From: Trileptium ribeirensis
Taxonomy: Eukaryota; Nematoda; Enoplea; Enoplida; Thoracostomopsidae
Direction of reading: 5' to 3'
NCBI GenBank assembly: GCA_030248225.1
Contig: JASANE010020434.1
Span: 31,321 to 95,320, forward strand
DNA: 64,000 nucleotides
In this document: in pieces, positions 24,711-58,084 of the stretch
Numbering within the stretch: the stretch's first letter is position 1
Layout: every line of letters begins with the position of its first letter
Made by a program: the position numbers and the translations under genes
The notes under the pieces: model-generated
What the model was told of the DNA's origin: nothing
The model's database searches: none
The model's input: the letters and a program-made list of their open reading frames with translations, nothing else

Positions 24711-24770
24711 TATCCGCTAAAATTTGTGAACGTGACAATGCACTCCAGCGGGAACTCGACTTAAGCTAAA

Positions 24771-31023: not shown

Positions 31024-31285
31024 ACAACGGCAATGAGTTTCCCATGCTCTCAAACGGCGGGAACCTTTTCAGCCGACCAGGACGTCAGAACAATTTCCGA
31101 ATTTTGGGTCGAGAAATCACGATGGTGCCATAGCTCAAACTCCAGAACCGGAGTCTTAATTGAAAAACAAAAAAGAGGGTCGGCATTTATCATTTTACTA
31201 TGAAACTATACCAAAGAGAGAAAAAATCGAAAGTTACGAAACAATAACCTTGCTTCCGTGAAGGGTATTAAAAGAGGATTAAAAT
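31024..31285. repeat. Left part of the tandem unit split by the retroelement
   Basis: Matches 52325-52600 and 52675-52920 in order: GAGTTT.CCATGC, CTTTTCAGCC..CCAGGACGTCA, CCAGAACCGGAG, GGCATTTATCAT and CTTCCGTGAAGGGTA. Joined conceptually across the insertion, the interrupted unit measures about 345 bp, close to the 350-bp period of the intact copies on the right. Confidence 0.85.
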
Positions 31286-34200
31286 TGTACTAGGACCAGT
31301 TCTGGCCCTAAGGGATCCCAGCTGCACCACTCTCAATATTCACGGTGGTGCCCGGACAACCCCGGCGTGAACGATTCCCCGGTGGATCCTAGTCTAACCG
31401 ATGGGAACCGCTTAGCTTAGCGGGCTGCTCGGCGGGTTTACCAGGGTGTTCGGCCTGGCCCCTATAGTGGCCCACGTGTCTAATGGTACGGAGTTCCCCC
31501 TGAGGGAGGGTCATCCCCTAGGCCTGCTCACAGGTAATGAGGTTGACCCGTCATTCCCTCTATTTCTGTGGTCGAATTTTATGCCTTGTGTGAGGTTCAA
31601 CACCTTGCCTAGTCATAGGGCTTGTTCACGAAAAGGCTCCATTGGGCCGAGTGATGGTTGCTTAACCCTTAGGCCCTCATGGTGCAGAGGCACGTTTGTG
31701 TTGCCTTAGTTCCACTTAGGGCTGAACACACTGAGCCTACTCGGCCCTAGAGATGTATAAGTATTCGGGCGTACGGAGGGACGTTGGTTTTACGAAAGCT
31801 AACGCGCGGGGGTAGGGTGGCGGGGATAATTACGGAATGGCGGGGGCGAGCACCATGGGGTAATGGGCCGGTGGAAAATGAGCAGCCTAATTCAAACAAT
31901 ATTGAACACCTAAATAGATCAGGTAATTCTTGCAACAGGGCCTGGTTTCGAATCAATCTAGTTCGCCTACTAAGTTTCACACGCAAAACCTTTTTATTTC
32001 ATGGATTTCCCTTTTTTGGCAAAGAATTAAAACATAAGCACGCGTTCACAAAAACAAAATGTCACCCACTCGGGTACATGTAGAAAGATATTGTATTATT
32101 TACATCAAAGATGGGCCAGGACCCGACCCACGCGCGCGGTCCTGGGCCCAAGCGATACCTCAACGATTAGCTTAAATATGATAGAATTTTGACCCCATTT
32201 TTTCTTGCGCCTCCCGTGGGATGACGAAATGATGTCTCGTGAGCTCCAATTGGGCTCCCTTTTTGAAACCATCAACCCGGAATTTGTGATTGTCTTAAGC
32301 CTTCACTTTGCCTTCCCATTGAGCATGTAAAATGCTGCCACCATTCTTGATACCAACCTAAGTTTTCCGGTAAATTTCCCTGCCCAGATTGCGAAAGCGC
32401 GGGCACAACACTTACGGGAGCGCGAGGCGTCCGACGGACACCACAGCATCCGCAAGGGTGCCCCTATTCCTGAACCTACGCAAGAAAATCTTAAAACTCT
32501 GGGAGAAGCCTCGGGCGGAACTCCTCCACGCGTCCGCAGTCGGGGAGTCCACCCGAGCTCAACACAACTTCCAAATTTTTGGCGTCCAAAACTTATTCCA
32601 CCTACCGCGCGTAAAGAAAAGCCAGCAAAGTTTCTCGAACCGTACCTAGTGTGAAACATCTCTATCAACCGCTAATTTATAGAGTGAAACTTAAAACACT
32701 TTAAACATCGGCAAGCAAAGCACCCACTGGGCGTCCTCAATAAACAACACCCAGTAGGTGGGGAACCAGTCGAGCACGGGTGGACCATTCCTTGTACCAT
32801 TTTGTCACAATTTTGTCCCAAAATTTCTCAAAGCCCAATCCCCCTCTTCACCGCGCGGGCACCGCACTTACGGGTGCGCGAGGTATCCGACGGACACCAC
32901 AGCACCCGCAAGGGCGGTCCCTAGTCTTAAGCCTAACTCAAAAATCCTGCAGGAAAAAAAACCCGGGTGGACCTCTTCCACGCGTCTACAGGTCGAAGAG
33001 TCCACCCGGGCACGACACAAACAAAAGCAAGGGAAGCGAAAATAGAACAGAAAAATTACGGCGACAACCGCCGACAAAACGTCGAATTTTAAAAGTGAGC
33101 CGCTCGACTGGTCCCATTTTATAAGGGTACCGTCTCCTTTTATAGTACCCGTTTCCCCCTTTTTTCCTTTTTCACTGCTGCATACCCAACACGTCAAATT
33201 CTCAAAACAATAATATATATATATAAAGCGACTTCAAACAACGAACAGAATAAACATATATATACGACATACGCATCTTCGTCGCCCTGCTGTATGTAAT
33301 AAGCCAGCCCCTAGCGGGCACATAGCAATATAGATGGCCAGCCGCAACACAAACGTGGCCAATAGCTGCCAAGGAGACAAAATCGCCCGCTGGTCGGTGC
33401 GGCTAAATTTTAAGAGCCGAATATAACGGCGCTCAGAGTGCCGTTTTTCTCACAGGGATATCGGCACATTTTTGCCGATATCTCAAGAACGAAAAACAGC
33501 GGCCGGGGGCAGGACCAGAATCATGCCCTGGCAGGCCGGCTACTGATGAAAATTTAATATCTAATGTAGCTCCTATGAGAGGCCCGTTAGAGGCCGTTTT
33601 AGGTACACAAAAACGAAAATTTTGGTGTCCCACTTAAGTCTAGAGGATCCTAAGCGGACCCGTGGGGGTGGGCGGCCCCGGTTTTCGATTAAACGGTTAG
33701 GGTGGGACCCGATAAGTGTCCCGAACTCCAAAAATCGTGGAGTTTAAATTATTTTGGGTGTCCTTTTAGGCTTAGAAAATTGGAGGCTTAAACGCCCGTT
33801 CGGGGGTCCATAAGTATTTAGGGGATCCAAATTTTTAGACCCGCCGGGACAATTTGACACCCCTAGGGAGTCTTTAAGATAGTTTAGTTACCCCCGTTCC
33901 CTTAAAAGTTATAGGAAACCCCAAAAATTGAATTTTTACCATTACACCCTAACATAGTGACTTAGGAAATTTGTACTCAAAATTTCAGTTGCCTCCAACA
34001 TGAAAATTTAGTTGAATGAGCGTGATAGGCCAGTGTATGAGATTTCTGCCTTCATCCTGACGATTCCTAACTATATATATTTATAGTGTACATCGTAGGC
34101 ACAATAACTCTTCGGCGTGTGCGCCGGGATCGGCCCAGGGCGACCAGTTTTCTTGTATTACAAAATCCCTGTGACTTCCGTTGGTCCCCGGGCTCTCCTA

Positions 34201-34566
34201 ACGCACACCCGTTCTTTACAACAAATATAACATCATGTAATATAATACACGAAATAGTTTATACACAAAACACGACATCCCTTTATTTCTTGAGGATCGA
34301 CCGGATACCCCTAATAGTGATCCTTTCTTTCATATTTGGTGCCAAAATCACCCCGGGCACCTTCGGGCGGTGGAGTGTGACCTTACAAATACAGTATAAA
34401 TGAAGTACAATTGTTTATTTTTATAGCAATAGTAATAACGCTACACAATGATCATTATATCAGGAGGCCACACTCCGACGGTATCCGGTCGTCCATTCCC
34501 ATCTTTCCCTATAAATTTGTTGTACTGTACGCGTTTTGTCATTTTCCTCAAAATTGGGCTGGTACA
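31286..34566 (-). repeat. 3' LTR (left copy), 3281 bp
   Basis: Direct repeat of 48958-52240, starting TGTACTAGGACC and ending GGGCTGGTACA. Differences from the other copy are scattered: about 20 in the first 600 bp, fewer beyond. Short frames on either strand occur in both copies simply because the copies are near-identical. Candidate AATAAA signals on the - strand occur (TTTATT at about 34283 and 34417), but U3/R/U5 borders could not be placed. Confidence 0.97.
32397..33023. repeat. Diverged direct repeat inside the LTR, offset 456 bp
   Basis: 32397-32570 and 32853-33023 share GCGCGGGCAC, ACTTACGGG.GCGCGAGG, CCGACGGACACCACAGCA, CCGCAAGGG, TCCACGCGTC and GAGTCCACCCG. The same pair is present in the right LTR near 50071-50240 and 50526-50698. 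They could be duplicated regulatory modules. Function is unknown. Confidence 0.85.
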
Positions 34567-35595: not shown

Positions 35596-36813
35596 TCAAT
35601 GCGTTAGGCGTCCCAACCCGGAGTCCCTAACTAAACGGCGTGCCCACTCATGCAAGTCCCGCCGGCAATAATGAGACAACATTGGCTCGTCAAAATGAGG
35701 CCCTTTTTGCCATTCCATATGTGGCTCGTCCCGTTCCCACGCGTCCGCAGTGTGGAACGCGACCGGCCAGGAAGGCATGTAAACGTTATGGAAAGTGTCA
35801 TACTGCCGTCGATGGTTGGCCATCAATTGCTTGAGTTCGGCCTCGATCTCAGCGTAAGTCCGGCGACATAAGTTAGGGTCGCTAAGGTCATCCATTTCTA
35901 CACTTTCCGTATCGGAACTATCACTGACTGCTGTTCTTACTGTGCGTACTGCTACTTCGTCTACCGGTTCTATCTCAGTAACGAAATCCCTATCAGCGAT
36001 AATTCGTTGGGTTGCCTCAGTTAAACAGTGCTCTAATACGGACGCATGTACTTGGCCTAACCAATCTCCCACGTTGGGTACCGGATCTAATGCCCTAAAA
36101 CATGGCTTAGTTCTATTAATATGTACGACATGGACCATGCCTTCTACATTAGAATGCATTCGTACGCGCATGAACGACGGGGTGATCCCTAATATTCTGT
36201 ATGGTCCACACCATCGAGGCGTGAGCTTTCTAGATGTTCCTGGCGTGGTATCGTACCTATAAACCCAAACTAATTCTTCGGTGTGATAGCGAGGTTCGCG
36301 AGCTCGCCTATCGTACCTTAGCCGATTTAATTGTTGGGCGGCTTTCATTGACTGGTATGCACGCTCCCTAATAGAAGCCATCCAGCGCTGCGCGTTGGCC
36401 CTATAGGAATGTGCTCCTGTGTATCCAGTAGCTGCACTTTGCGTGTCATATTCTTCAGGTAGCCTAGGGTAAAATCCATGCATCAGCAAAAATGGTGGGT
36501 ATTTTGTCGCTGTGTGTACCGAGGAGTTATAGGCCATTATGCAAAACGGCAGGGATACATCCCATGAGTGGTGGTCATCCTGTGGTACACTTACTCGTAA
36601 TAAGTATAGGAGGGTCCTATTGAATCTTTCAATTTCACCGCTTGCCTGAGGGTGATAAGCTAAACTCATGTGCCGAAATATCTGCATTTCTTGGCACAGT
36701 TCTTCGAACATGTGCGCTGTGAAGGCACCTCCTTTGTCAGAATATAGCTCCCTGGTAGCCCCGTACCTATTGACTACCTCATATAGGAATATGTGGGCAG
36801 CTGTGCGGGCATC
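35596..36813 (-). CDS. pol: pol, integrase second half and C-terminal extension (after an in-frame TAG)
   Basis: In the same frame as 36814-38930 but beyond a TAG at 36814-36816. It supplies the second integrase Asp (ELYSDKGGAF) and the catalytic Glu (YHPQASGEIERFNRTL), then the GPY/F-type module (PRWCGPYRIL). About 200 residues follow with no chromodomain, first acidic (DSSDTESVEMDDLSD) and then Trp/His-rich. A TAG where CAG is one transition away suggests a simple inactivating mutation. Integrase joins element cDNA to host DNA in the nucleus. Confidence 0.9.
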   Translation of the reverse strand, partial: DARTAAHIFLYEVVNRYGATRELYSDKGGAFTAHMFEELCQEMQIFRHMSLAYHPQASGEIERFNRTLLYLLRVSVPQDDHHSWDVSLPFCIMAYNSSVHTATKYPPFLLMHGFYPRLPEEYDTQSAATGYTGAHSYRANAQRWMASIRERAYQSMKAAQQLNRLRYDRRAREPRYHTEELVWVYRYDTTPGTSRKLTPRWCGPYRILGITPSFMRVRMHSNVEGMVHVVHINRTKPCFRALDPVPNVGDWLGQVHASVLEHCLTEATQRIIADRDFVTEIEPVDEVAVRTVRTAVSDSSDTESVEMDDLSDPNLCRRTYAEIEAELKQLMANHRRQYDTFHNVYMPSWPVAFHTADAWERDEPHMEWQKGPHFDEPMLSHYCRRDLHEWARRLVRDSGLGRLTH

Positions 36814-38930: not shown

Positions 38931-40720
38931 CTAACTGCCAAAACCCTTATTCAGGTCCAAACTTGACATTAGTTTCGTGTTCCTGAGACATCCTAGTATA
39001 TCATCTATGCGTGGCAGTGGGTACGCATCCTGCTCTGCTACGGTGTTGACCTCCCGAAAGTCAACACAGAGTCGGAGAGAGCCGTCGCTCTTTGTTACAT
39101 AGACTATTGGTGATCCCCAAGGTGAGCTCGATGGGGCTATGAGGCCTGCGTCTAGCATGCTATTTAGTTCTTCCCTAAGTGGTTCGCGTAAGGAATGCGC
39201 CAGCCTATACGGTGCTTGTTTGATTGGCTTTGCATCCCCTGTTCCTATGCGATGTCGGTGTTCCGTGTATCGTCCAAGGTCAAAATCATGCGTGCTGAAT
39301 ACGTCTGCACTTTCAGCAATTGCGGTTTTCAGTTGTTTTAATTCGAAGGGCGATAATAGTGTCCTATCGAAATCTATTTTACTCAATACGGTTTGAGCCC
39401 GTTCATGATCAATGGAGTGCTTGCCTGCCTCGATGTGTTCAATGATCCTCTCGGGGTGGGCAGTGATATGGTTTAGCTGTTTAGCCTCCTTATGTTCCTC
39501 GTATCGTATCAAATTTTGATTTGTATCGTTCAGGAATTGTATAGTTGGATTGCTCATGACCTCAATGTGCCCAATAGCTTGTCCTGAGTATATGGTGACC
39601 GGTGTATTGCAAAAATTGATTACTGCGATCGGTATGGTCCGTTGACTCCTAAGCACCAATGCCTGAGCCATTGCGATATCCGTCATTTCGGGAGCGGGGA
39701 TAAATAGAGCGGGTCCTACGCCTGTGTCAACTATTTCGGGGATAGCGTTGATAAACATTTCTGTATTTGGTTCGATGGTGGTGAGTTTTCTGCACATCAC
39801 TGCAATTAAGGGTAGGTCATAGCGCTGTAAGCCTTCGAAGGGTATCTTGGCTTGTTCTTCGTCTATGCCAATTTCCAAACAGTGCTCGCGAAAATTTATG
39901 ATGCATTTTGGCAGTTGTGACAAGAATTTTGTTCCTAGGATGCAATGGTACGGAGCGGTTTGGGTAACGAAGAATACCGTCTGCACCTTAATAGGTCCAA
40001 TCGATAAGGGTACACTTATGCTGCCGTCCAAAGCTAATTCTTGCTTGGTGGCCGATACTATCCGTGTTGAGTCGTCTGGACGGGGCTGAAGACCTAGCTT
40101 GCTTACCAGATGTTGTGATACGATAGAGTCGTCCGCGCCTGTATCGATCAACGTGAGGACTGGTGTCCGGTAGATAAAAGCGTTGATGAGCAACGGTGCG
40201 TCTATGTGGTGCATGGCATTGACTTGTCGGTGGTAAGATACCGTGCGATGTCCCCTACGTTGCGCACGCTCGGATACTGCAAATTGTTCCGTGGGTTCCA
40301 CCAGAACAACGTCCTCGTCCTCATTGGGGCTATTCAGTCGAGCCGATCGACGAGGGCTCAATGCCCGCAATTCCAGGTGTTCCGTGAGAGCGGCTGGGGC
40401 TGAGACGGTTGGTCGGGTAGTATCTGGTGTGCCGTATTCGTTTCCGGTCTTGATGTTCAATTCAAGTCTCTTTGGGTAGGTTTGACCGCATGGTCGTTGT
40501 CTCCACCAGCGCTGCACACGTCGTTTTATGCATTTGGGGCAGAAGCCCGCCTTCTTCCTGAAGTAAATGATAGCCCCTATTCCTACGACTACTAGCACAA
40601 CGAGCATCCAAAGGTAAGGAGCTACTCCCGTTGTCGTGATGTATGGGAAGTCGATCACTTTCTTCAACGGCTCGTCAGCTATCCGTTGGACCTGTAAGTT
40701 GGTAGACTTGGCGTGTTCTA
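38931..40720 (-). CDS. pol: Envelope-type membrane anchor fused to pol protease and RT N-terminus
   Basis: The frame is open on the - strand from about 40,720; the TTG at 40667 is not a meaningful start. It opens with a heptad-like segment (EHAKSTNLQVQRIADEPLKK) and a 22-residue hydrophobic helix at 40560-40625 (GVAPYLWMLVVLVVVGIGAI). Then come a basic Cys-containing tail (FRKKAGFCPKCIKRR), about 110 linker residues, aspartic protease LTLIDTGADDSIVS with the second-half motif ILGTKF, and RT N-terminal motifs (PYRLAHSLREPLREEL, SSPWGSPIV, RLCVDFREVN, SSLDLNKGF). It is truncated by loss of one T in a T run at 38940-38943. A membrane segment directly upstream of a retroviral-type protease is highly unusual. 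Confidence 0.9.
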
Positions 40721-41062
40721 ATCAGCTCCAAGTGATGGGTCGAAGAGGAATATCTGGGAAGTCATGTATGTGATGTTAGGTCCGATGTGAACGGTGACCT
40801 CCTGAGCGTCTAATGTACTGGCGAGCATTAGTGGCCCGACCACTAGTTGGGTGTAGTTGCTGTGAGACATTCATAAGACTCCATTTTCTGGTATCATAAT
40901 GGTTTTCCCCGCGCGTAACATGGCTGAGGTGCTTTTGCTTGGAGACCACGGCTTTGGGTTCGGCGGTTTGAATTAGTACTCCTTGCTTGCGCGGTGGTGT
41001 ACACGTCGGTATGGTAGACCATTGGTCCAACCAATGCGCTATTCCGGCATATGCGGCGCGTG
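40721..41062 (-). pseudogene. Broken C-terminal ectodomain of the envelope-like gene
   Basis: Coding-like sequence changes frame at least three times between the ORF4 stop and the membrane anchor: at a 6-C run (41068-41073), somewhere near 40,930-40,960, and near 40,720. An in-frame TGA lies at 40871-40873. The readable pieces include AHWLDQWSTIPTCTPP and PLMLASTLDAQEVTVHIGP, with sequons NYT and NIT. The segment links the fusion-peptide ORF upstream to the hydrophobic anchor downstream, so the two were probably one protein in an intact copy. Pieces are described only; no joined product is given. Confidence 0.7.
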
Positions 41063-42550
41063 TCATCGGGGGGCGTCTTCGCCCATGATGATCCAATCCA
41101 AACAGCGTGAAGAATGATCGGTGGCCAAAGCGTGAACTTCGCAGAAGGCAATGCCGGGTCGCGTGTTGCATGCGTGCAAGTTCAGCACCTCGTATCGTGC
41201 CTGTTCGACTCCCGTGGCGTATTCCGGCAGAGGTAGTCTCATGTGTGCGCCGCGCTCTGGTACATTCCAACCGACGTTGTATATCCGAAAATAAGGCCGG
41301 ACGTCGTTCGACGTAACTAGCGGTACCCTTAAGATGAATGCAAATTTGAACGTGCCCAGGTCAATGTGCACTTGGTAAATTTGCCCAAACTGGTATGCTA
41401 GCGCCGGCTCGCGTATTAGTATGGTTTGTCCTATTCTTGGATCCTTTTCGAATAGACGCTTTAGTGTAGCGGCATCCACCACTTTTGGTGATAGCTGTCT
41501 GCTCATCATGGCTTCCATGACGGCGTCAACTGAATAGCGCAGGCTGGTGCGAAACGTATGGTTAACCAATTCGCGATGCACCTCTGTCACGTAGCGTTGT
41601 TCCTGGCACCTGACCTGTTCTATCATGCCAACCACTTCCTGCATCTCATGGTGCAAGAATGAGTAGAGCTCCTCGTTAGCGCGTGTTACTTTCAAAATTG
41701 CTCGCGAGTTGCCCTGGGCCACACTGTAAGTATTTCGCATTTCCTTGGATAATGCTATCACCTGTTTATTTAAATCCTTGAGGCGCACTGCATTTGTGAA
41801 GGCTACCCCTACTCCTAAAAATCCGGTAACTACGCCAGCAGCTCCGGCTAGGGCAGCGAGAAACCTTTTCTTAAGAGCCTTGGGCTCTTCACAAAAATGA
41901 ACATTCGCTTCGCAATATTCGCGCATTAGAGCCATGTAATAACTGGTATCTAGCACACCTTGATAGGTGCTTCTTAGTTCTTGTTCCAACTCTTGCATTT
42001 TACGCTGTAAATCCGGCATGGTAGTACAATTCGGGTTGGGACAACAGTCTCCCAGGCATGGTTTACCCCTGGGTGTGTAGACACACCAGGCCATCCCGGT
42101 AGCTTGCCTGCTCGGTTGTAACCCATCTAGGGACAATCGCAAAACGATCGGCAGAAAAGTGGATCGCGCGGCTGTTATTACCAGACCCTGTGGTACGATT
42201 AGGGTCCCCACTTGTTGGTTAACCATGGCTCCTAAGCGTGCTACCTGGTCCGAAAATGGCGTGGCGATTGCCTGGGTTTGGCCCATTTGTTGAACGATAA
42301 GCAGCAAAATTACTAGTCCCACGAATCTAATCCCTCGGCACCACAATTCTGCAGCTGCTGCATATCGTTGGCTTAGTCTGTTTGAGAAGGGCCGTACCGA
42401 CCTGGTCAGTATTGCTCGGCCACCCTCAGTTGCGTCCACGTATGGTTCGTTTCCGAGATCGTCATTGTCCGAAAGTGAGTCGAGGTCGGACACCACCTCG
42501 TCTGAGTCGAGCGTCACGATAGCGGGTATGTTAAACTCGTCCTCGCTCAT
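41063..42550 (-). CDS. ORF4, class-I-fusion-like envelope protein (truncated)
   Basis: 495 codons from an ATG 20 bp after the ORF3 stop. An acidic ~70-residue N-terminal tail (DSDEVVSDLDSLSDNDD) precedes a hydrophobic signal-anchor at about residues 73-88 (GIRFVGLVILLLIVQQMG). A Cys-rich knot follows (CVYTPRGKPCLGDCCPNPNC, 156-175), then a coiled-coil-like stretch. At 224-229 a basic KALKKR precedes a Gly/Ala-rich hydrophobic segment (FLAALAGAAGVVTGFLGVGV), followed by heptads to about 315. This is the architecture of class I fusion proteins. It ends at TGA beside a 6-C run. No family was recognised by sequence. The position before pol is abnormal. Confidence 0.75.
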   Translation of the reverse strand: MSEDEFNIPAIVTLDSDEVVSDLDSLSDNDDLGNEPYVDATEGGRAILTRSVRPFSNRLSQRYAAAAELWCRGIRFVGLVILLLIVQQMGQTQAIATPFSDQVARLGAMVNQQVGTLIVPQGLVITAARSTFLPIVLRLSLDGLQPSRQATGMAWCVYTPRGKPCLGDCCPNPNCTTMPDLQRKMQELEQELRSTYQGVLDTSYYMALMREYCEANVHFCEEPKALKKRFLAALAGAAGVVTGFLGVGVAFTNAVRLKDLNKQVIALSKEMRNTYSVAQGNSRAILKVTRANEELYSFLHHEMQEVVGMIEQVRCQEQRYVTEVHRELVNHTFRTSLRYSVDAVMEAMMSRQLSPKVVDAATLKRLFEKDPRIGQTILIREPALAYQFGQIYQVHIDLGTFKFAFILRVPLVTSNDVRPYFRIYNVGWNVPERGAHMRLPLPEYATGVEQARYEVLNLHACNTRPGIAFCEVHALATDHSSRCLDWIIMGEDAPR

Positions 42551-42572
42551 ACCACTGGGCGCTGTACTCAGC

Positions 42573-43985
42573 TCACTCCTCGTTGATGAATGTTACGTCT
42601 GCGTCCGGGTTGACAATCGAGCCTGCGTCCATGTCGTCGTCCGGATCAGTTTGCCAGATATTTTGTGCGGGCTGACGCAACCATAATAGTCTCAGGTATA
42701 GCAGTTCTTCGCGTTTCTGCACGCTGTCTACTTGCTTAAAAATAGCATTCGCTATGACTGCATATACGGTGTGGTCAATTGACAGCACCGGTGCAATGGG
42801 ACCGGATTCGTCATATTCAGTAACGAGGTAGTCTAGCAAGTACGGTGCGTTGGTCACAGTTTCTAACCGTTCCAAGTTAGCTTCCCTATATGCGGTCAAC
42901 TCAGGAGCTGTGTGGAACCCATATGTACGACTTGGTTGGATGGTAATGGTTCCATTACGTCGGACTACGCCGTATACGGCAGTCAAATTTCTCATATATT
43001 CCCACTCGCCGTGATAGGTGATAAAAGTGCAACCTCTGGTGGGCATAAAACTAGTGTTGTGTCGTCCCTCGCACGCCTGGCATGTTTGAAGGATAGGAAT
43101 TTGAGAGCGGTATATTTCAGTAATGGCCTCGGTAATGCTCATTGAGTTTAACACCCGGGCTACTAATTGCAAAAAGCCTTCGAGGTGTCTCACCATGCTA
43201 CTGCTGACATGGATCCCGGCCATAGTGTGCAAGAACGGAGATGCGAACCCTAACAGCCCGGACACAACGGCAGCGTCCCGCCGTCGCTCCAGTGGGGCCG
43301 TTCCAGCCGCCCGAGCTCTTAGCAACTCGTGAGCATGGCATATCCGCTCCGACACAGCGACGACTCTTCGATAAAGTAAGGCCCTAGCGAGTACCTGTTC
43401 TCTACCTGGGCGTAGCCGAGGGGGTATGAATGAATAGCGGGGCACTTTCCCAGGTCCCAGAATTATGATTGTGGGTGCGAATTCGGAGTCCGGTCCCAAT
43501 AATATCAATCGCTCCTCGTTGGGCAATCCCTGTAGAATTAGGGGCTCTACCTTTTCTTCGGTAGGACCCTTCGAGAATATCTGTCTTAGTGCGAGATCAA
43601 GATTATGTTGTGCATTAGTTTGCGTGCTCAGTGGATGCATGGCCTGTTCAGGTGTTTCTGTGTGATCGCAAGTAAGTTTCGTGGTGGGGTTCACGTTAAT
43701 GGGGTCCCAAAGCTGTCTAGTTCGCAATGATCTAGGTGTGGCCAGTGTTTGTTCAATTATGTCCATCAGGTTGACCGGCAATCCGGTCGTTCCATATCCA
43801 ATTTCCATCACTATGTCCCTACTTAAGTAACAGGTCACTATCTCGGGTTGTGTTACTGTTCGTTCCGTTATCCGGTTGCTTGCTCGGGCGCTTATGTTCA
43901 ATTCGGATACCATAGGTGTCACAATCATAATATTCGAGCTTGGGCTAGCAGTTATCGGCTTCCTTAGGTTAGTATTAGGTTCCAC
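42573..43985 (-). CDS. ORF3, unidentified, second fusion-peptide-like segment
   Basis: 470 codons, in the same frame as ORF2 and separated from it by one TAA at 43989-43991; the annotated GTG start is arbitrary. There is no N-terminal signal or membrane helix. At residues 232-257 a basic LERRR is followed by a Gly/Ala-rich nonpolar run (DAAVVSGLLGFASPFLHTMA) and an amphipathic stretch, echoing ORF4 at the same relative spacing. Three sequons (NTS, NLT, NGT at about 310-346) and a CQACEGRH/RGC Cys cluster suggest a glycoprotein ectodomain. The C-terminal end is acidic (DPDDDMDAG). It could be a surface-type partner of ORF4, a diverged envelope duplicate or an unrelated accessory protein. Confidence 0.7.
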   Translation of the reverse strand: MEPNTNLRKPITASPSSNIMIVTPMVSELNISARASNRITERTVTQPEIVTCYLSRDIVMEIGYGTTGLPVNLMDIIEQTLATPRSLRTRQLWDPINVNPTTKLTCDHTETPEQAMHPLSTQTNAQHNLDLALRQIFSKGPTEEKVEPLILQGLPNEERLILLGPDSEFAPTIIILGPGKVPRYSFIPPRLRPGREQVLARALLYRRVVAVSERICHAHELLRARAAGTAPLERRRDAAVVSGLLGFASPFLHTMAGIHVSSSMVRHLEGFLQLVARVLNSMSITEAITEIYRSQIPILQTCQACEGRHNTSFMPTRGCTFITYHGEWEYMRNLTAVYGVVRRNGTITIQPSRTYGFHTAPELTAYREANLERLETVTNAPYLLDYLVTEYDESGPIAPVLSIDHTVYAVIANAIFKQVDSVQKREELLYLRLLWLRQPAQNIWQTDPDDDMDAGSIVNPDADVTFINEE

Positions 43986-43988
43986 TTG

Positions 43989-46160
43989 TTACTTCGTTTC
44001 CAATCTCTTATCCTTATCATTCAAAGTCAGGTTCATCGCTGCTCGACTACTATGATCACCTATACTAGAAATATTTTCGGCACTCGGCTCAATTTGGTCT
44101 CCATGTGGCTCGGAACCCGTTTCACTCATAAGCGGCACAGCCTCTCTTCCCGGTTCTACACACACGCTGGAGGCATCGGTTCCGGCCGACTCAGATTCGA
44201 ACGCACACATATTCACCAGCCGGTTGGATCGACCATGCCACGACAGACTCAAACCGCAGTCTCCGACCTGGTCAGATCCCACGGCCCCTACACTTAGGGA
44301 TCGGGCTCTATACGAGTTTGATCCTACACATAAATTACAATTTTGAATGGAGCTCGGGCCATCGGGACGGCTCACTTCCCAACGCCTCTTTTCTCCTTTC
44401 CAGTGTCCTCTACGGTCTTCCCCGGCCTCTAAAGAATCTAGGGTACACATACGCTCTCGAATTTTGAATGGAGTTAGGACAATCGGGCTGACCCGTTTCC
44501 CGAAGGTCTCCATCGCACCTGACCAGTGTCCTTTACGGTCTTCCCCGGTCGGTTGAAACGCTACAGGGGCGTCACACGGCCGCCCTAAATTGGTGGGAGC
44601 CAGTTTAGTATCGGATGCATCCACTAGGTTAAGTTCATTTAGTTCCTTAGGTTCTCGGTTCCCTTCCGCTAGGTTACTTGGTACTCCATTCCATCCATTT
44701 AGTTCCGCTAGGTTAGGTTCCACTAGGTTTTCGGTATCCGCAAGTCCATTAGGGTCCGTTGAGTTCACTGATTCCTCCGCAGGTTCTTCTGGTTCCGCTA
44801 CACATATACAATATTGAATAAGCCTGTGGAAAGTCGCGGTTTCACCAGGTTGTGCCGTGCCGACGTTAGAGCCATCGCCTGACACGCGACCCCTATTAAT
44901 CGGCCCCCGAAGTCCGAACGGCGTCTCTCTAGGTTCCATTCCATTAGGTTTATTTAGTTCTCCATCCGCTAGGTTCTTAGGTTCCATCCGATGTGCAGCC
45001 GCCTGAGATGGGTTACACGTGCCAGCATTTGGGTCATTGCTGGACACGGATGCCCTATTAATCGGCCCCCGAAGTCCGAACGGCCACCTCCCATATTTCT
45101 CACTCGGCACATCAGGATCATTAGGTTCCTTTGGTTCCATTAGGTTCTCGGTTCCTCCTCCTCTCTCACTCCTCTCGGTATCTCGGTTTCCAACACTTCG
45201 CGCTGACTCCAATTTGGGATATACATATAACTCGGTCGGCCGACCATTACTCACAGGGTCACGAGTCACACCCTGCGCGCCAGGGGTCGGAGACAGTGAA
45301 ACCGAGCGCCGTTCGGTTTTGGAGCTAATTTGTTCCTTATTACGCCCTACTTCTACCACGCTGGTTAGTTCGTTTTCAATTGCGTTATATTCCCCATTGT
45401 CGCCCCACGACCTGGTCGCTTGCGGCAATACTCCTGCAGGTGTTCGGTTCGTTTGCAGCAAATTCAGTTGATATGGTGTTGGTTCGGGTTCAAATTCGCG
45501 CTGGCATTCGTTTTCCGCTTCACTATTTGGGTCTTCATGTGCGTATTTTGCGCTGTCTCTAGTGATCATTGCGTTAATTTGTGTCGATCGGGCGCTCAAC
45601 CCAGCCCCTACGCGTTCCTCTAAGGTTGACATTTCGTGTCGCATGACATCTAAACGATGCGCGAGCTCGGGGTCAGCTGCTCGAGTTACTGACATAACTC
45701 TTGCGTTGCGGCGACCTGATTGTTCATTCTGAGTCATAGGTGCCTGAGAAGGCCTTGCTCGTGGGGCTGCCGTTACTTGATTAGCGTTGTTCCAGCCGTT
45801 GCTAGGTGTGCGCGGGCGGAATGGTGCTGCTTCGGCAGACAATTGTTGTGGTGGGCCTGTGTAACGTGCGCTGGGTGCAGCATTATAGATATTATGCCAA
45901 TTGTTGGGTCCGTTTGTATCGCGGCCACGCGATCGGTTGTAGTATTCAGTTCGGCCATAGTTTCCATATGTGTTCGAGGCAGGTTCAGGGCGGTAATATC
46001 CTTGCTGCCCGTAACCTACAGGTCCTCGCTGTTGGTTCCATTCATCGCGTCGCGAAGATCGGCCTGCTCCTCGGTGCTCAATTACTCGGTATCGGGGGCG
46101 GTTGCTGTACTGCGGGGTTGCGCTAGGATAACCGTGATTGGGTGCGGGCGCATTCTGCAT
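43989..46160 (-). CDS. ORF2, 723-codon low-complexity protein of unknown function
   Basis: Open from 46211 (ATG at 46160), starting just behind the gag stop in another frame. The N-terminal third is Gly/Arg/Tyr/Asn-rich (GPVGYGQQGYYRPEP, NRSRGRDTNG), resembling RNA-binding RGG/low-complexity tails. The middle is rich in Glu-Pro-Asn repeats (e.g. NLVEPNLAELNGWNG) and repeats RGPINR in two 54-codon units. The C-terminal part holds two GEDR(K/R)GHW units about 123 bp apart. No enzymatic motif, signal or membrane segment was seen. It may be a gag C-terminal extension reached by frameshifting, or a separate accessory protein. Confidence 0.7.
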   Translation of the reverse strand: MQNAPAPNHGYPSATPQYSNRPRYRVIEHRGAGRSSRRDEWNQQRGPVGYGQQGYYRPEPASNTYGNYGRTEYYNRSRGRDTNGPNNWHNIYNAAPSARYTGPPQQLSAEAAPFRPRTPSNGWNNANQVTAAPRARPSQAPMTQNEQSGRRNARVMSVTRAADPELAHRLDVMRHEMSTLEERVGAGLSARSTQINAMITRDSAKYAHEDPNSEAENECQREFEPEPTPYQLNLLQTNRTPAGVLPQATRSWGDNGEYNAIENELTSVVEVGRNKEQISSKTERRSVSLSPTPGAQGVTRDPVSNGRPTELYVYPKLESARSVGNRDTERSERGGGTENLMEPKEPNDPDVPSEKYGRWPFGLRGPINRASVSSNDPNAGTCNPSQAAAHRMEPKNLADGELNKPNGMEPRETPFGLRGPINRGRVSGDGSNVGTAQPGETATFHRLIQYCICVAEPEEPAEESVNSTDPNGLADTENLVEPNLAELNGWNGVPSNLAEGNREPKELNELNLVDASDTKLAPTNLGRPCDAPVAFQPTGEDRKGHWSGAMETFGKRVSPIVLTPFKIRERMCTLDSLEAGEDRRGHWKGEKRRWEVSRPDGPSSIQNCNLCVGSNSYRARSLSVGAVGSDQVGDCGLSLSWHGRSNRLVNMCAFESESAGTDASSVCVEPGREAVPLMSETGSEPHGDQIEPSAENISSIGDHSSRAAMNLTLNDKDKRLETK

Positions 46161-46200
46161 GTAGCCTGGGCTGCGAGTGTTGACAAGCGGGTGTATTCGT

Positions 46201-47241
46201 TCAGGAGTGGGTCATACACGTCGGTTCGATGGTACGGCATTCCCGTGCAAAATGTCCTACGAAACCGCATCGAAAGCACTGGTTGCAAATAGGTGCTGCT
46301 CGAATAGCGTTGGCGTCGGCTGCCGGGGTCACACTATTCTGCATCAACGCGTTTAGTTGATGCTGTTCGGTGCGTTTATCTAGCAGGTCAATAAGCCGAG
46401 CGATCGTGGCGTCGCTACTGGCTGCGGTGCGTTTATTCTCATCTAAAGCTTCGCGGATCTGATCTACCAGTTGGGTATTCTCGCCTCCCTGTGACATGCA
46501 ATTAACCGTTTTGGACCGGCTGCTCTTGCGAACCGGTATCCCTATCACCTCTTTCTGAGAAGCTAAGATGGCGTCCTCCTTATATTTGAGCTTGTCCATC
46601 ATGTGCTTAAAAGACGGGTAGGTCTTTCCTATTACTCCAGATTTTAGCTCTCGTCGTAGTCCTTGTCAGAGGAACTTCTGTAATAGGGCGTCGCGTTGTT
46701 CACCTTCGACCTCCGGAAATGCTTTGTCCACTAGGTTCTGCAAGTCAAGTCCGTACAGGGCAACTGATTCACGTTCCCCTTGTACTCGCATGCGTAGCGT
46801 TATTAAAGCGTCCTCGTCGCGTTGGGATGACGAATACATGAAATCCATATTATAGCAGAGAGCCTCATAAGTTTGCTTTTGACAGTCGGGGAAGCTTTCG
46901 TATATTTTGAGGGCTTCCCCTTTTAATACTGTTGGAAAGCAGATTAGCTTCTGGTCCAGGGTCCACCCATTTGCGTCAGTCAAGTTGTCATACGTAGCCA
47001 ACCAGGCTTCAAAATCCTGTCCGTCAGCTCCTGAAAATGGTGGGATGTCCCGTACTTGAATGATGGGACCCGTCGTCGTTCGTTGCGTCAACTGCTGCAG
47101 AATTGCAACTAGAGGGTCTCCCGAAACAGTGGGAGCTGGTCCATTTGTACTACCAGCCGTAGTGGCAGTGCCACTTCCTATATTCGTGGTTCCCGCTGCG
47201 CTACTGACTGGCGTTCTATTCGCGCTCGCTGGAAATGACAT
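46201..47241 (-). CDS. gag: gag, interrupted by one TGA
   Basis: The ATG at 47239-47241 is the likely start; an upstream GTG at 47265 is in frame. The N-terminus is Ser/Thr/Ala-rich. A retrotransposon-gag matrix/capsid-like segment follows (DIPPFSGADGQDFEAWLATY, KLICFPTVLKGEALKIYESF). At 46666-46668 a TGA breaks the frame, which stays open afterwards to the zinc knuckle CFRCGFVGHFAREC (CX2CX4HX4C) near the end. CGA to TGA is a one-step transition, so a point mutation is the simplest explanation; programmed readthrough is not excluded. Gag builds the cytoplasmic particle that packages element RNA. Confidence 0.93.
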
Positions 47242-48934
47242 TTTGATTCCGACTATGATAATCACTTCCTATTTGTTTTGAGTTTGTGTGGCGTCCGTGG
47301 TCCCAGTCTGACGTGGGTACGGATGATATAATATATAACTTGCTATATATGTTTTCTTTACTGCGGAATCTTCTACTGTTGAGCGAAATTTCAGTTCACT
47401 AAGATACTAGTGTACTTACTCCTTAAGTATGTAGATGATCGTGCAAAATTTTCGCTTCGCTTTAAGTTATAAGGTCTTTCACTGTTGTGCCTTCTACGTA
47501 TAACCTATATGTCTTCACTCAATTCGATGCTCGCTCGATGCACCGTATCATCTAAATCAAGCAGACCGTATTCGATTTTACTTCGAAAGACCCGCTATAT
47601 TCAGTTGGTTTAGCCGTAAAATTCTTTACGTTGCTGGGAGGATTACCTCTTAGTCCTATGCAACAAAAGATTCACGTAGATCGCTCCAGCGGAGTAGTTA
47701 TTTCCACAAACTGGGTTTTTTCAAAAAAAAACTTGTAAAGTGTAACCAGGACCTACATGGATATCAGCTTAGAGGTACGTGCAGACAAAATATTATTGAA
47801 TTTAGATGGTTACAGTTCATCAGTAATTCAACAACTTATCCGAAGTCAAGATGAGACGCGGTACCACAATAAATGACAATGTAATTTACACAGCTATACA
47901 TATAATACAGACTATAATTACTGACCACGATTCGAGTGTCCTTCACGATTTCGCCAAAGCACGATTTCGAGGCAATTTATACGAGGAGGCTCAAGGTCGG
48001 TGTCAACACTAGCACAGGTTGTCGACTGCTCAAATTGGCCGAGTTGTTGCTAATATCGCCGACTAATCGAACGGGGTCGGTGGTATCACGTTCAGTACAA
48101 TTAACGAGTTCGTAGGTTCGTCGGTACCGAAACTTAATAGTTGCACGGAAATACCGTCGTGTCGATTTCCAAATTGCTGGTGAACGATGGTAACCCGACA
48201 CTGACTGGGGTAATTAATAGTCCGCCACCTGATAGTCCAATGCCCGGATAATGTCCCGATCGGCAGAAAAAATCGACGACTAAATACGGTAAACGTCCCG
48301 GCTTACAAAAAATATATGTGGCTGATTAGACGCAAAACGTATAATTAAATACCGCCGTCGATATACGAATTAACGTACCCAGCTAGCTGTGTGCACCAAT
48401 GAACTGATACTATCCGTGCAGATGCTATACTTAGTCCAATGAGCTCGATAAGAATCCTGAAAATAACGGTTCTAGCAGACACGCATTGAGTACAAATCAA
48501 ATTCATCACAAACCATGAACCTTCCTACATACGACATCCAGTTTCAAGTTCGAACTGTAACTTTAGCCCTGACCCATGCGGCCCAGCGGACACAGCTTCC
48601 CGAGAACTGGATCTCCACTACTCCTTTCCTTAAGACCAAAATAACCCCCACGAATAAACTCAGCTCGTGAATACGATGGGGTGCGTCTTTACGGCGCCGC
48701 TGGGAGACATGAGCCAGTTTTAATAACACTCCATTTATGCCTGGCAATACCCAACCTTTGGCTCCACCGTACGAAGCCAATAATATTATGAAACATTTAG
48801 ATAGACTGAGCGAATAATGGCAATTGACCATAATGAATAGCAAAGTCGTAATAAGGCCAAGAATTTAGGGTGTGCGAGAGGTCCTCCAACTACTGCTTCG
48901 AGGACCTCCTTCCCCAGAAACTTTATTGACGCCC
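47242..48934 (-). other. Element 5' leader, about 1.7 kb
   Basis: Between the primer-binding site and gag. It includes a 99-codon frame (48544-48843) with hydrophobic patches and a 74-codon frame, neither recognised; both are most likely chance. A 9-bp inverted repeat close to the primer-binding site is listed separately. Confidence 0.6.
48878..48908 (-). promoter_or_regulatory. Hairpin just 3' of the primer-binding site
   Basis: GAGGTCCTC (48878-48886) and GAGGACCTC (48900-48908) are perfect inverted repeats around a 13-nt loop, 26 bp downstream of the primer-binding site in element RNA. The place fits a packaging or dimerisation stem-loop. Function is inferred from position only. Confidence 0.5.
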
Positions 48935-48957: not shown

Positions 48958-51900
48958 TGTACTTGGACCAGTTCTGGCCCTAAGGGATCCCAGCTACACC
49001 ACTCTCAATATTCACGGTGGTGCCCGGACAACCCCGGCTTGAACGATTCCCCGGTGGATCCTAGTCTAACCGATGGGAACCGCTTAGCTTAGCGGGCCGC
49101 TCGGTGGGTTTACCAGGGTGTTCGGCCTGGCCCCTATAGTGGCCCACGTGTCTAATGGTACGAAGGTCCCCCTGAGGGAGGGTCATCCCCTAGGCCTGCT
49201 CACAGGTAATGAGGTTGGCCCGTCATTCCCTCTATCTCTGTGGTCGAATTTTATGCCTTGTGTGAGGTTCAACACCTTGCCTAGTCGTAGGGCTTGTTCA
49301 CGAAAAGGCTCCATTGAGCCGAGTGATGATTGCTTAACCCTTAGGCTCTCATGGTGCAGAGGCGCGTTTGTGTTGCCTTTTAGTTCCACTTAGGGCTGAA
49401 CACACTGAGCCTACTCGGTCCTAGATATGTATAAGTATTCGGGCGTACGGAGGGACGTTGATTTTACGAGAGCTAACGCGCGGGGATAGGGTGGCGGGGA
49501 TAAATACGGAATGGCGGGGGCGAGCATCATGGGGTAATGGGCCGGGGGAAAATGAGTAGCCTAATTCAAACAATATTGAACACCTAAATAGATCAGGTAA
49601 TTCTTGCAACAGGGCCTGGTTTCGAATCAATCTAGTTCGCCTACTAAGTTTCACACACAAAACTTTTTTATTTCATGGATTTCCCTTTTTTGGCAAAGAA
49701 TTAAAACATAAGCACGCGTTCACAAAAACAAAATATCACCCACTCGGGTACATGTAGAAAGATATTGTATTATTTACTTCAAAGATGGGCCAGGACCCGA
49801 CCCACGCGCGCGGTCCTGGGCCCAAAGGATACCTCAACGATTAGCTTAAATATGATAGAATTTTGACCCCATTTTTTCTTGCGCCTCCCGTGGGATGACG
49901 AAATGATGTCTCGTGAGCTCCAATTGGGCTCCCTTTTTGAAACCCTCAACCCGGAATTTGTGATTGTCTTAAGCCTTCACTTTGCCTTCCCATTGAGCAT
50001 GTAAAATGTTGCCACCATTCTTGATACCAACCTAAGTTTTCCGGTAAATTTCCCTGCCCAGATTGCGAAAGCGCGGGCACAACACTTACGGGAGCGCGAG
50101 GCGTCCGACGGACACCACAGCATCCGCAAGGGCTGCCCCTATTCCTGAACCTACGCAAGAAAATCTTAAAACTCTGGGAGAAGCCTCGGGCGGAACTCCT
50201 CCACGCGTCCGCAGTTGGGGAGTCCACCCGAGCTAAACACAACTTCCAAATTTTTGGCGTCCAAAACTTATTCCACCTACCGCGCGTAAAGAAAAGCCAG
50301 TAAAGTTTCTCGAACCGTACCTAGTGTGAAACATCTCTATCAACGCTAATTTATAGAGTGAAACTTAAAACACTTTAAACATCGGCAAGCAAAGCACCCA
50401 CTGAGCGTCCTCAATAAACAACACCCAGTAGGTGGGGAACCAGTCGAGCACGGGTGGACCTTTCCTTGTACCATTTTGTCACAATTTTGTCCCAAAATTT
50501 CTCAAAGCCCAATCCCCCTCTCCACCGCGCGGGCACCGCACTTACGGGTGCGCGAGGTATCCGACGGACACCACAGCACCCGCAAGGGCGGTCCCTAGTC
50601 TTTAGCCTAATTCAAAAATCCTGCAGGAAAAAAACCCCGGGTGGACCTCTTCCACGCGTCTGCAGGTCGAAGAGTCCACCCGGGCACGACACAAACAAAA
50701 GCAAGGGAAGCGAAAATAGAACAGAAAAATTACGGCGACAACCGCCGACAAAACGTCGAATTTTAAAAGTGAGCCGCTCGACTGGTCCCATTTTAAAAGG
50801 GTACCGTCTCCTTTTATAGTACCCGTTTCCCCTTTTTTCCTTTTTCACTGCTACATACCCAAGACGTCAAATTCTCAAAACAATAATATATATAAAGCGA
50901 CTTCAAACAACGAACAGAATAAACATATATATATACGACATACGCATCTTCGTCGCCCTGCTGTATGTAATAAGCCAGCCCCTAGCGGGCACATAGCAAT
51001 ATAGATGGCCAGCCGCAACACAAACGTGGCCGATAGCTGCCAAGGAGACAAAATCGCCCGCTGGTCGGTGCGGCTAAATTTTAAGAGGCGAATATAACGG
51101 CGCTCAGAGTGCCGTTTTTCTCACAGGGATATCGGCACATTTTTGCCGATATCTCAAGAACGAAAAACAGTAGGCGGCCGGGGGCAGGACCAGAATCATG
51201 CCCTGGCAGGCCGGCTACTGATGAAAATTTAATATCTAATGTAGCTCCTATGAGAGGCCCGTTAGAGGTCGTTTTAGGTACACAAAAACGAAAATTTTGG
51301 TGTCCCACTTAAGTCTAGAGGATCCTAAGCGGACCCGTGGGGGTGGGCGGCCCCGGTTTTCGATTAAACGGTTAGCGTGGGACCCGATAAGTGTCCCGAA
51401 CTCCAAAAATCGTGGAGTTTAAATTATTTGAGTGTCCTTTTAGGCTTAGAAAATTGGAGGCTTAAACGCCCGTTCGGGGGTCCATAAGTATTTAGGGGAT
51501 CCAAATTTTTAGACCTGCCGGGACAATTTGACACCCCTAGGGAGTCTTTAAGATAGTTTAGTTACCCCCGTTCCCTTAAAAGTTATAGGAAACCCCAAAA
51601 ATTGAATTTTTACCATTACACCCTAACATAGTGACTTAGGAAATTTGTACTCAAAATTTCAGTTGCCTCCAACCTGAAAATTTAGTTGAATGAGCGTGAT
51701 AGGCCAGTGTATGAGATTTCAGCCTTCATCCTGACGATTCCTAACTATATATATTTATAGTGTACATCGTAGGCACAATAACTCTTCTGCGTGTGCGCCG
51801 GGATCGGCCCAGGGCGACCAGTTTTCTTGTATTACAACATCCCTGTGACTTCCGTTGGTCCCCGGCCTCTCCTAACGCACACCCGTTCTTTACAACAAAT

Positions 51901-52240
51901 ATAACATCATGTAATATAATACACGAAATAGTTTATACACAAAACACGACATCCCTTTATTTCTTGAGGATCGACCGGATACCCCTAATAATGATCCTTT
52001 CTTTCATATTTGGTGCCAAAATCACCCCGGGCACCTTCGGGCGATGGAGTGTGACCTTACAAATACAGTATAAATGAAGTACAATTGTTTATTTTTATAG
52101 CAATAGTAATAACGCTACACAATGATCATTATATCAGGAGGCCACACTCCGACGGTATCCGGTCGTCCATTCCCATCTTTCCCTATAAATTTGTTGTACT
52201 GTACGCGTTTTGTCATTTTCCTCAAAATTGGGCTAGTACA
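48958..52240 (-). repeat. 5' LTR (right copy), 3283 bp
   Basis: Starts TGTACTTGGACC and ends GGGCTAGTACA, followed by the AAAT target duplication. Contains the same internal direct repeat as the left LTR (near 50071-50240 and 50526-50698) and a TATATATATA patch near 50885-50935. It is the promoter-bearing LTR for the - strand element. Its 3.3-kb length is well above the few hundred bp usual for Ty3/Gypsy elements. Confidence 0.97.
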
Positions 52241-52244
52241 AAAT

Positions 52245-52985
52245 AACCCTGATTTGACCACTGACCCCGAACCATCGGAGCGCTATACCCGCGTGCCCAT
52301 AAAACCATAGCTCATAGAGCAAAACCAACGCCGACAATGAGTTTGCCATGCCCAAACACCCCCAAGTGAAACTTTTCAGCCTCCCAGGACGTCAAAACAA
52401 ATTTTCTAATTTCTCGTCGGGGAACCATGAGGTGCCATATCTCAAATCCCATACCTCCAGCACCGGAGCCTTAATCGAAAGAAAGAGGCATCGCCATTTA
52501 TCATCTTACTATAAAATAATACCAACGAGAATCGAAAATTAAGATAAAAATAACCTGGCTTCCGTGAAGGGTACTAAAATGGGGTAAAAAATCCTCATTT
52601 TGCCCTCTGACCCGAAACCATGGGGCGTCATACCCCCGTACCCATAGAACCATGGATCGCAGAGCAAAAACTCCCCCCCCCCGGAAATAAGTTTCCATGC
52701 CCAAAAACAACCATTTGAAACTTTTCAGCCGTCCAGGACGTCAGAACAAATTTTCGAATTTTGGGTCGAGCAACCATGAGGTGCCTGCCATACCTCAAAA
52801 CCCATAACTCCAGAACCGGAGCATTAATCGTGAAGCAAAAAAGAGGCATCGGCATTTATCATTTTACCATGAAATAAAAGCAACCAGAGAAGAAAATTCG
52901 AAAGTTAAGATGAAAATATTCCTTGATTCTATGTAAGGTACTAAAATGGGGAAAAAATCTTCATGTTGACCTCTGACCGCGAAAC
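52245..52985. repeat. Tandem array of a 350-bp unit (retroelement target)
   Basis: GTTT(G/C)CCATGCCC at 52341 recurs as GTTTCCATGCCC at 52691. Each copy carries CTTTTCAGCC..CCAGGACGTCA, CACCGGAG/AACCGGAG, GGCATCG.CATTTATCAT and GGGTACTAAAATGGGG. With the left piece at 31024-31285 there are about three units. The array ends around 52985. Confidence 0.88.
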
Positions 52986-53636
52986 CAGACCTTAAATTAA
53001 AGTACACGCATGTACACAGTAAATCGATTATACTGGTTCGAATGAACCCCAGATCGTAAAAATCGGTTAAGTCGTTCCCAAGTTATGACCGATGACACAC
53101 ATACAGAGACGGGATTTAAAAGCTTTCACCCCTACAACGCACAATCTCAACTAAGTCACACTACGCTCTGAGAATTTCGCAGGAGCGCCACTATCGGATT
53201 TCAAGTTTTTTTTCAGGAATGATAACGCCCATTTTCGAGAAAACAGTGAGTTTTAATTTTGTAAACAATTAGAACGCACACCTGCCAAGCAAAAGTTAAA
53301 TGATTAGTGCAGTTGGACAGGTAGGCGGTGAGACTTGGTTCTACCACCCTGAAACCTGATCCAACCTAGTATTAAGGCACAATGAAGTTGATCATCGATG
53401 AGTTCTAACAAGCTTGCTTATCTACTAGTATTGTTCCAAAGCTTTACCCAAGTGTTGAGGCGTAGTTCCCTGCACCGCTGCATCCTAAGCGAACATGCGA
53501 TTTTGCCTACAATATGGATGGGGCGTTTGGTATCGATTTTGCAACGTGCTATCTAAGCAATTTTAATTATCAATATATCCAATGAGTTTTCCTGGTAGTT
53601 CGTGTCGTGCCAGATCATGCTATACTGTCAGAGGCA
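52986..53636. other. No gene seen
   Basis: At 53050-53120 a GTCGTTCCCAAGTTATGACCG word followed by ACACACATACAGAGACGGG resembles the 3' ends of some non-LTR retrotransposons, but no coding remnant accompanies it. Confidence 0.35.
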
Positions 53637-53676
53637 GCGATCACACTACTTGTGTAGCGATCACACTACTTGTGTA
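53637..53676. repeat. Perfect 20-bp tandem duplication beside an exon
   Basis: GCGATCACACTACTTGTGTA occurs twice head to tail, ten bases beyond the donor of the - strand candidate exon. Confidence 0.95.
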
Positions 53677-53685
53677 ATGCCTTAC

Positions 53686-58079: not shown

Positions 58080-58084
58080 TGTTT

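What the first reader, a model, noticed from the sequence alone, without database searches (positions are those of the whole stretch)
40560..42550. Envelope-like gene placed between gag and pol, with its membrane anchor in one frame with the protease
The element reads gag - ORF2 - ORF3 - ORF4 (signal-anchor, basic site, fusion-peptide-like segment, heptads) - sequon-bearing remnant - transmembrane helix and basic tail - aspartic protease - RT - RNase H - integrase, all on one strand between matched LTRs. In retroviruses, errantiviruses and other env-carrying LTR elements env lies 3' of pol. Here the anchor and about 110 residues of tail are continuous with the protease domain, so an intact copy could make an Env-Pol membrane polyprotein or a membrane-tethered protease. 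This may be an undescribed retroelement lineage.
Basis: partly seen in the sequence, partly recalled or inferred. Interest (0 to 1): 0.9.

Follow-up and report, generated by a model that had tools for sequence, protein, structure and literature searches.

The report
Envelope domain inside retrotransposon polyprotein
This is one decayed copy of a repeated virus-like DNA element whose cell-entry-type protein is built into the middle of a single giant protein, between the particle-forming part and the copying enzymes; the layout is real and rare, but was already reported for flatworm elements in 2019.

Summary
Window 31286-52240 (minus strand) is a Ty3/Gypsy-type LTR element with 3.28-kb LTRs and a 4-bp target duplication. 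This copy is broken; ORF2, ORF3, ORF4 and the 'remnant' are fragments of one frame. Of 73 best-scoring copies of the anchor-protease-RT piece, 62 lack an internal stop and 11 lie in a frame of 4320-4346 aa. Order: Gag, linker, ORF3, Env-like, anchor, PR, RT, RNaseH, IN, tail; nothing Env-like follows pol in 8 of 8 pieces. The Env-like part has a signal-like segment, RKKR, a fusion-peptide-like segment, one heptad, an anchor, and 12 cysteines and three sequons kept in 17 of 17 copies. Between two subfamilies its protein hardly changed (dN 0.04-0.07, dS about 2). Best reading: Env is made as an internal, membrane-threaded part of a Gag-Env-Pol polyprotein; no homology to known fusion proteins was detected, and function is inferred. 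The layout is not new: planarian Burro elements were reported in 2019 as the first in-frame env between gag and pol (PMC6431247, passages). This element is smaller and, by Pfam, lacks Burro's extra domains.

The parts
31282..31285 (.). target-site duplication AAAT, left side (the other copy is 52241-52244)
31286..34566 (-). 3' LTR, 3281 bp, TG...CA
35596..36813 (-). integrase core, second part, and C-terminal region; departs from other copies after about 35836, where they carry a tail of 512-522 residues
36814..38946 (-). RT (C-terminal part), RNase H, integrase zinc domain and start of core
38931..40721 (-). one open frame: end of the Env ectodomain, transmembrane anchor, basic tail, aspartic protease, start of RT
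39915..40169 (-). aspartic protease domain (PF13975, 8.8e-11); motif LIDTGAD at 40131-40151
40560..40616 (-). transmembrane helix YLWMLVVLVVVGIGAIIYF
   Evidence: (in other copies)
40605..41070 (-).
   Evidence: open in one frame in other copies
41606..41800 (-). heptad-repeat region (3.5-residue period, computed on the L009 copy)
41786..41863 (-). fusion-peptide-like segment FLAALAGAAGVVTGFLGVGVAFTNAV
41864..41881 (-). basic cleavage-like site (KALKKR here; RKKR in 17 of 17 full-length open copies)
41864..42262 (-). short N-terminal subunit of the Env-like part, 133 aa
42263..42343 (-). embedded signal-like segment ending AIA
   Evidence: hydropathy
41063..42592 (-). ORF4: acidic linker, signal-like segment and most of the Env-like part
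42573..43988 (-). ORF3: conserved domain of unknown kind, no convincing database match
43989..46211 (-). ORF2: Gly/Arg/Pro-rich and repetitive linker region; includes the cassette at about 44286-45186
46201..47268 (-). Gag with one CCHC zinc knuckle at 46234-46281; interrupted by a stop in this copy
48958..52240 (-). 5' LTR, 3283 bp

Best explanation
A repeated Ty3/Gypsy-type LTR element encodes one polyprotein of about 4.3 kilo-residues in which a class-I-fusion-like envelope glycoprotein sits between Gag and the protease. Likely working: the full-length RNA is translated from Gag; the embedded signal-like segment threads the Env-like part into the ER; signal peptidase frees the Gag side; a furin-type host protease cuts at RKKR; the C-terminal anchor returns the chain to the cytosol, so that PR-RT-RNaseH-IN stay on the same side as Gag and PR can cut itself off the Env tail. 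Shown: order, single frame, sequence hallmarks, protein-level conservation. Inferred: translation as one chain, membrane topology, cleavages, fusion activity.
For: Single frame of at least 4300 aa around 11 of 73 matches and 8 of 85, 13 different places in all. Env pieces open in 18 of 20 fetched; of the 9 not chosen for a frame of 4300 aa or more, 7 are open. Env-to-protease continuity seen directly in L002, L005 and L006. Gag-to-ORF3 pieces open in 11 of 12 (11 preselected for long frames), pol pieces in 8 of 8 (all preselected). RKKR, 12 ectodomain cysteines and three sequons in 17 of 17, a fourth sequon in 10 of 17. Fusion-peptide-like segment, heptad of best period 3.50 in L009 (shuffle p 0.0018), anchor. 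dN 0.036-0.071 with dS 2.0-2.5 in the Env ectodomain. No Met conserved between the end of ORF3 and the signal-like segment (at most 12 of 18 rows); nearest conserved one is 16 of 17, about 100 residues upstream. No acceptor-like site in 10 of 10 subfamily A copies. PR-RT-RNaseH-IN by Pfam.
Against: No significant Pfam or PDB sequence match for the Env-like part and no homologue among the 7997 scored candidates of the 5.8-billion protein set. Single-sequence model of low confidence (mean pLDDT 36.3). A second heptad before the anchor is not supported (p 0.22), and the signal-like segment passes the hydropathy cut-off of 1.6 in only one of three copies scanned; it is also loosely conserved (dN 0.39). 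No RNA or protein data. The genome tool scores only the best matches, so intact copies are over-represented.
Confidence: 0.72

Rival explanations
1. Same element, but Env is made from a spliced subgenomic RNA (as in retroviruses), and the in-frame junction with PR gives a second, rarer or incidental product.
For: Retroviruses make Env, and Cer1 its CERV protein, from spliced RNA (PMC10309623, passages). The linker before the signal-like segment is the least constrained part of the Env piece (dN/dS 0.39). In subfamily B two acceptor-like sites in and just after the signal-like segment are each shared by 4 of 7 copies.
Against: No conserved start codon before the signal-like segment and no acceptor-like site in any of 10 subfamily A copies; a spliced Env RNA would still run on into PR with no stop.
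Confidence: 0.2
2. The membrane segment is not an envelope but a membrane-targeting module of the polyprotein that works only inside the cell (for instance bringing Gag-Pol to a membrane).
For: No detectable homology to known fusion proteins; a published caution that such features alone do not prove an env (PMC5408684, passage).
Against: Sequons, conserved cysteines, a furin-type site directly before a Gly/Ala-rich segment and a following heptad occur together and are conserved.
Confidence: 0.1
3. The element is simply a member of the planarian Burro family, already described.
For: Same in-frame env between gag and PR, very long ORF, Ty3/Gypsy pol (PMC6431247, passages). CpG is not depleted in the flanks, which would fit many invertebrates, flatworms included (recalled).
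Against: Total 20.96 kb and internal 14.39 kb against more than 30 kb and up to 25 kb; none of BIR, ankyrin, BCL2, MATH, dUTPase reported by Pfam. Flank G+C 37-38%; planarian genomes are recalled as poorer in G+C.
Confidence: 0.3
4. Chance or assembly chimera of two elements.
For: None found.
Against: Matching LTRs and target duplication; same order on many contigs.
Confidence: 0.01

Closest known systems
Burro (GYPSM1 and kin), giant Ty3/Gypsy elements of planarians (PMC6431247, passages)
   Same: One huge ORF starting with Gag, env in frame between gag and PR, then RT-RNaseH-IN; interpreted there as integrated proviruses.
   Different: Burro is over 30 kb with ORF1 of 4873 aa (5140 aa in another planarian), several captured cell-type domains and a dUTPase-like domain; here 20.96 kb, 4320-4346 aa, none of those domains found by Pfam, and a long S/T/P-rich tail after IN. 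Sequence kinship not tested.
Errantiviruses / gypsy of insects (layout recalled; only listings seen)
   Same: Ty3/Gypsy pol and an env of class I type.
   Different: env is a separate ORF 3' of pol there.
TelKA elements of bdelloid rotifers (PMC5408684, passages)
   Same: LTR element with a fusion glycoprotein about 600 aa long of paramyxovirus F type.
   Different: env is ORF3 downstream of pol, with clear homology to a known family; none detected here.
Cer1 of C. elegans (PMC10309623, passages)
   Same: No stop between gag and pol; an additional protein region beyond Gag and Pol.
   Different: the extra ORF follows pol, is expressed by splicing, and is not an envelope by that paper.

Membership tests
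Ty3/Gypsy LTR retrotransposons (Metaviridae) | PR-RT-RNaseH-IN order | tested here: met
   Pfam
Ty3/Gypsy LTR retrotransposons (Metaviridae) | LTR pair with TG...CA and short target duplication | tested here: met
Ty3/Gypsy LTR retrotransposons (Metaviridae) | RT groups with known Ty3/Gypsy clades | tested here: inconclusive
   Tree of 123 rows puts it with P0005 and P0006 (SH-aLRT 99), nearest identity 73%; no labelled clade references
Class I fusion glycoprotein (Env/F) | signal segment, furin-type site, fusion-peptide-like segment, first heptad, anchor, in this order | tested here: met
   weakest item is the signal, above the hydropathy cut-off in 1 of 3 copies scanned
Class I fusion glycoprotein (Env/F) | second heptad before the anchor | tested here: inconclusive
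   period-3.5 shuffle p 0.22 in L009
Class I fusion glycoprotein (Env/F) | sequence match to a curated fusion-protein family or solved structure | tested here: not met
Class I fusion glycoprotein (Env/F) | fold | tested here: inconclusive
   single-sequence model, mean pLDDT 36.3
Class I fusion glycoprotein (Env/F) | membrane fusion activity | not testable with these tools
   needs the bench
Burro elements | env in frame between gag and PR | tested here: met
   layout in PMC6431247
Burro elements | total over 30 kb, internal region up to 25 kb | tested here: not met
   20955 and 14391 bp in the window copy
Burro elements | BIR, ankyrin, BCL2, MATH_TRAF, dUTPase-like domains | tested here: not met
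   no such Pfam family (Pfam only; the review used HHpred, which may see more)
Burro elements | sequence kinship with Burro and planarian host | not testable with these tools
   no Burro sequence held, genome unnamed, host-marker search did not complete
Errantivirus-type elements | env 3' of pol | tested here: not met
   8 of 8 pol pieces and the window's stretch up to the 3' LTR: no Env match better than chance (one at E 0.99), highest 19-residue hydropathy in the pol pieces 1.29

The most novel reading that the evidence does not exclude
A retroelement lineage separate from Burro that makes its envelope only as the middle of a membrane-threaded Gag-Env-Pol chain, so that Env and Pol are made 1:1 and Pol is tethered to the membrane through the Env tail until PR acts. 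If so, the in-frame layout arose or persisted outside planarian Burro and is a stable alternative way to build an enveloped retroelement.
Probability: 0.35. Interest if true: 0.75.

Novelty: new variant of a known kind. Interest (0 to 1): 0.55.

Why it matters
In retroviruses and most env-carrying retroelements env is a separate gene after pol, usually with its own RNA. Here the Env-like part is locked into the Gag-Pol frame, and two subfamilies whose silent sites are near saturation kept it almost unchanged. This gives an example beside Burro, without Pfam-detectable captured domains, in which expression, topology and processing of a Gag-Env-Pol polyprotein could be tested. It also warns that env searches limited to the region 3' of pol miss such elements.

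Tried and rejected
ORF3 as a second envelope: rejected, no significant similarity to ORF4. ORF3 or Env by PDB or Pfam profile: nothing significant. Protein set search with ORF4: none. IMG/VR scans with the anchor-PR piece, P0006, the RT-RNaseH-IN piece and the Env alignment: no relatives. Structures of ORF4 and of an ORF3 piece: low confidence, so no fold search was made. Host: no tRNA and no Rfam match in the window; the ORFs in the flanks were listed but not searched against families; a cytochrome oxidase search of the genome was asked 13 times and never answered. A primer-binding site was looked for by eye after the 5' LTR and not assigned. Paper searches for other gag-env-pol layouts gave only PMC6431247 as a match among what I saw; one search listed 20 of 33 papers, 15 of 45 and 15 of 88.
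Full report
What is there. The window holds one complete LTR element on the minus strand, 31286-52240, 20955 bp, with 3281- and 3283-bp LTRs and an internal part of 14391 bp, ends TGTAC...GTACA and AAAT on both sides. LTR divergence is 58 differences in 3274 aligned columns plus 16 gap columns, K2P 0.018. Pfam finds a CCHC knuckle in Gag, an aspartic protease, RT, RNase H and integrase in Ty3/Gypsy order.

The window copy is decayed. Its Gag has a stop, and ORF2, ORF3, ORF4 and the remnant are parts of one frame cut by frame changes. After about 35836 it departs from other copies: they run on for 512-522 residues, it for 79 unlike ones.

Other copies. A search of the window's own genome (687 Mb, 20229 contigs) with the anchor-PR-RT piece scored 73 matches out of 4446 candidates, 86-94% alike besides the window itself; 62 of 73 have no stop inside the piece and 11 of 73 sit in an open frame of 4320-4346 aa. 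With ORF4, 85 matches were listed (84 candidates scored of 2308); 61 of 85 have no stop; two more places with frames of 4319 and 4324 aa appear, 13 in all. Counts are lower bounds and favour intact, similar copies.

Continuity. I fetched the Env region of 20 of the 73 copies, mostly chosen for long frames: 18 of 20 are open from ORF3 through the Env-like part and the anchor to about 40 residues beyond it (one of the 18 is a short piece). Of the 9 not chosen for a frame of at least 4300 aa, 7 are open. Of eight loci examined, four were read on the coding strand; L002, L005 and L006 run open from the Env-like part through PR, and L004 has one stop within the Env-like part. Gag-to-ORF3 pieces are open in 11 of 12 (11 of the 12 were preselected for long frames); the pol side is open in 8 of 8 (all preselected) to a stop 512-522 residues after the point where the window copy departs, with an S/T/P-rich tail. 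These pol pieces carry no Env match better than chance (one at E 0.99) and no membrane segment (highest 19-residue hydropathy 1.21-1.29); they end short of the 3' LTR, but the window's own stretch up to its 3' LTR has no Env match either.

The Env-like part. In 17 of 17 full-length open copies 12 ectodomain cysteines, three tail cysteines, RKKR directly before the hydrophobic Gly/Ala-rich segment, and three sequons are kept; a fourth sequon is in 10 of 17. In L009 the 65 residues at and after the end of that segment have their strongest hydropathy period at exactly 3.50 (5000 shuffles, p 0.0018); a heptad before the anchor is not supported (p 0.22). The embedded signal-like segment reaches mean hydropathy 1.68 in L009 but stays under the 1.6 cut-off in L015 and L024, so it is less certain than the anchor. 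The short N-terminal subunit (133 aa) and long C-terminal subunit recall F proteins (recalled knowledge), but no sequence search found kin, and the single-sequence model is poor.

Selection. Between subfamily A (10 Env copies) and B (7), dN is 0.036 in the N-terminal subunit, 0.055 in the fusion/heptad part, 0.055 in the middle and 0.071 in the C-terminal part, with dS 2.0-2.5, near saturation, so ratios of 0.02-0.03 are only approximate. The RT-to-IN blocks (A 4, B 4 copies) give dN 0.01-0.08 with dS 0.95-2.2 where it could be computed. The linker (dN 0.47, ratio 0.39), signal-like segment (dN 0.39, 0.23), anchor (0.11, 0.11) and tail (0.20, 0.10) are looser. dS could not be computed in six blocks, four of the Gag-ORF3 piece and two of the pol piece. 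So the Env-like ectodomain has been kept at the protein level about as strictly as pol.

Expression. No Met is conserved between the end of ORF3 and the signal-like segment (best 12 of 18 rows); the nearest conserved one (16 of 17) is about 100 residues before it. No acceptor-like AG with a pyrimidine tract was found there in any of the 10 subfamily A copies; in B two sites in and just after the signal-like segment are each shared by 4 of 7 copies. This favours a polyprotein but does not exclude splicing. Topology then works by itself: Gag and Pol in the cytosol, Env in the lumen (inference).

Kin. The RT groups with two proteins from metagenome contigs of 4643 and 3378 bp (P0005, P0006; 72% and 69% over the RT-RNaseH part; SH-aLRT 99). 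I did not see the DNA of those contigs, so their gene order is unknown.

Precedent. [quoted passage not shown] The present element works like that. It is not filed as Burro: size and captured domains, where tested, do not fit, and kinship could not be tested. The primary Burro paper was not held.

Verdict. Host, RNA and protein evidence are missing.

Noticed in passing
window about 44286-45186 (ORF2): A stretch of about 0.9 kb in ORF2 is 86-99% identical between copies of two subfamilies that are about 36-81% alike on either side, with dN about equal to dS in part of it. It may be a recently exchanged or inserted cassette, or be constrained as nucleic acid; its search scored only 40 of 480 candidates, so whether it also lies outside the element is open.
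   Followed up: partly
window 1-3200: Tandem satellite with a unit of about 167 bp.
   Followed up: no
window 31061-31273 and 52368-52946: Both flanks of the element carry 76-79% alike repeat units, so the element seems to have landed inside a repeat array.
   Followed up: no
window flanks 3501-31285 and 52241-64000: CpG observed/expected is 1.05-1.07, so no sign of CpG methylation decay; G+C 37-38% against 48% in the element.
   Followed up: partly
window about 35836: This copy departs from the others after integrase and lacks a conserved S/T/P-rich tail of 512-522 residues.
   Followed up: partly
window 43029-43082 (ORF3): C-x2-C-x3-H-x9-C pattern in ORF3, its cysteines and histidine kept in both subfamilies; no family match.
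   Followed up: partly
window 24010-24711 and 25241-26206: Near-identical tandem duplicates of about 350 bp and four units of about 242 bp.
   Followed up: no
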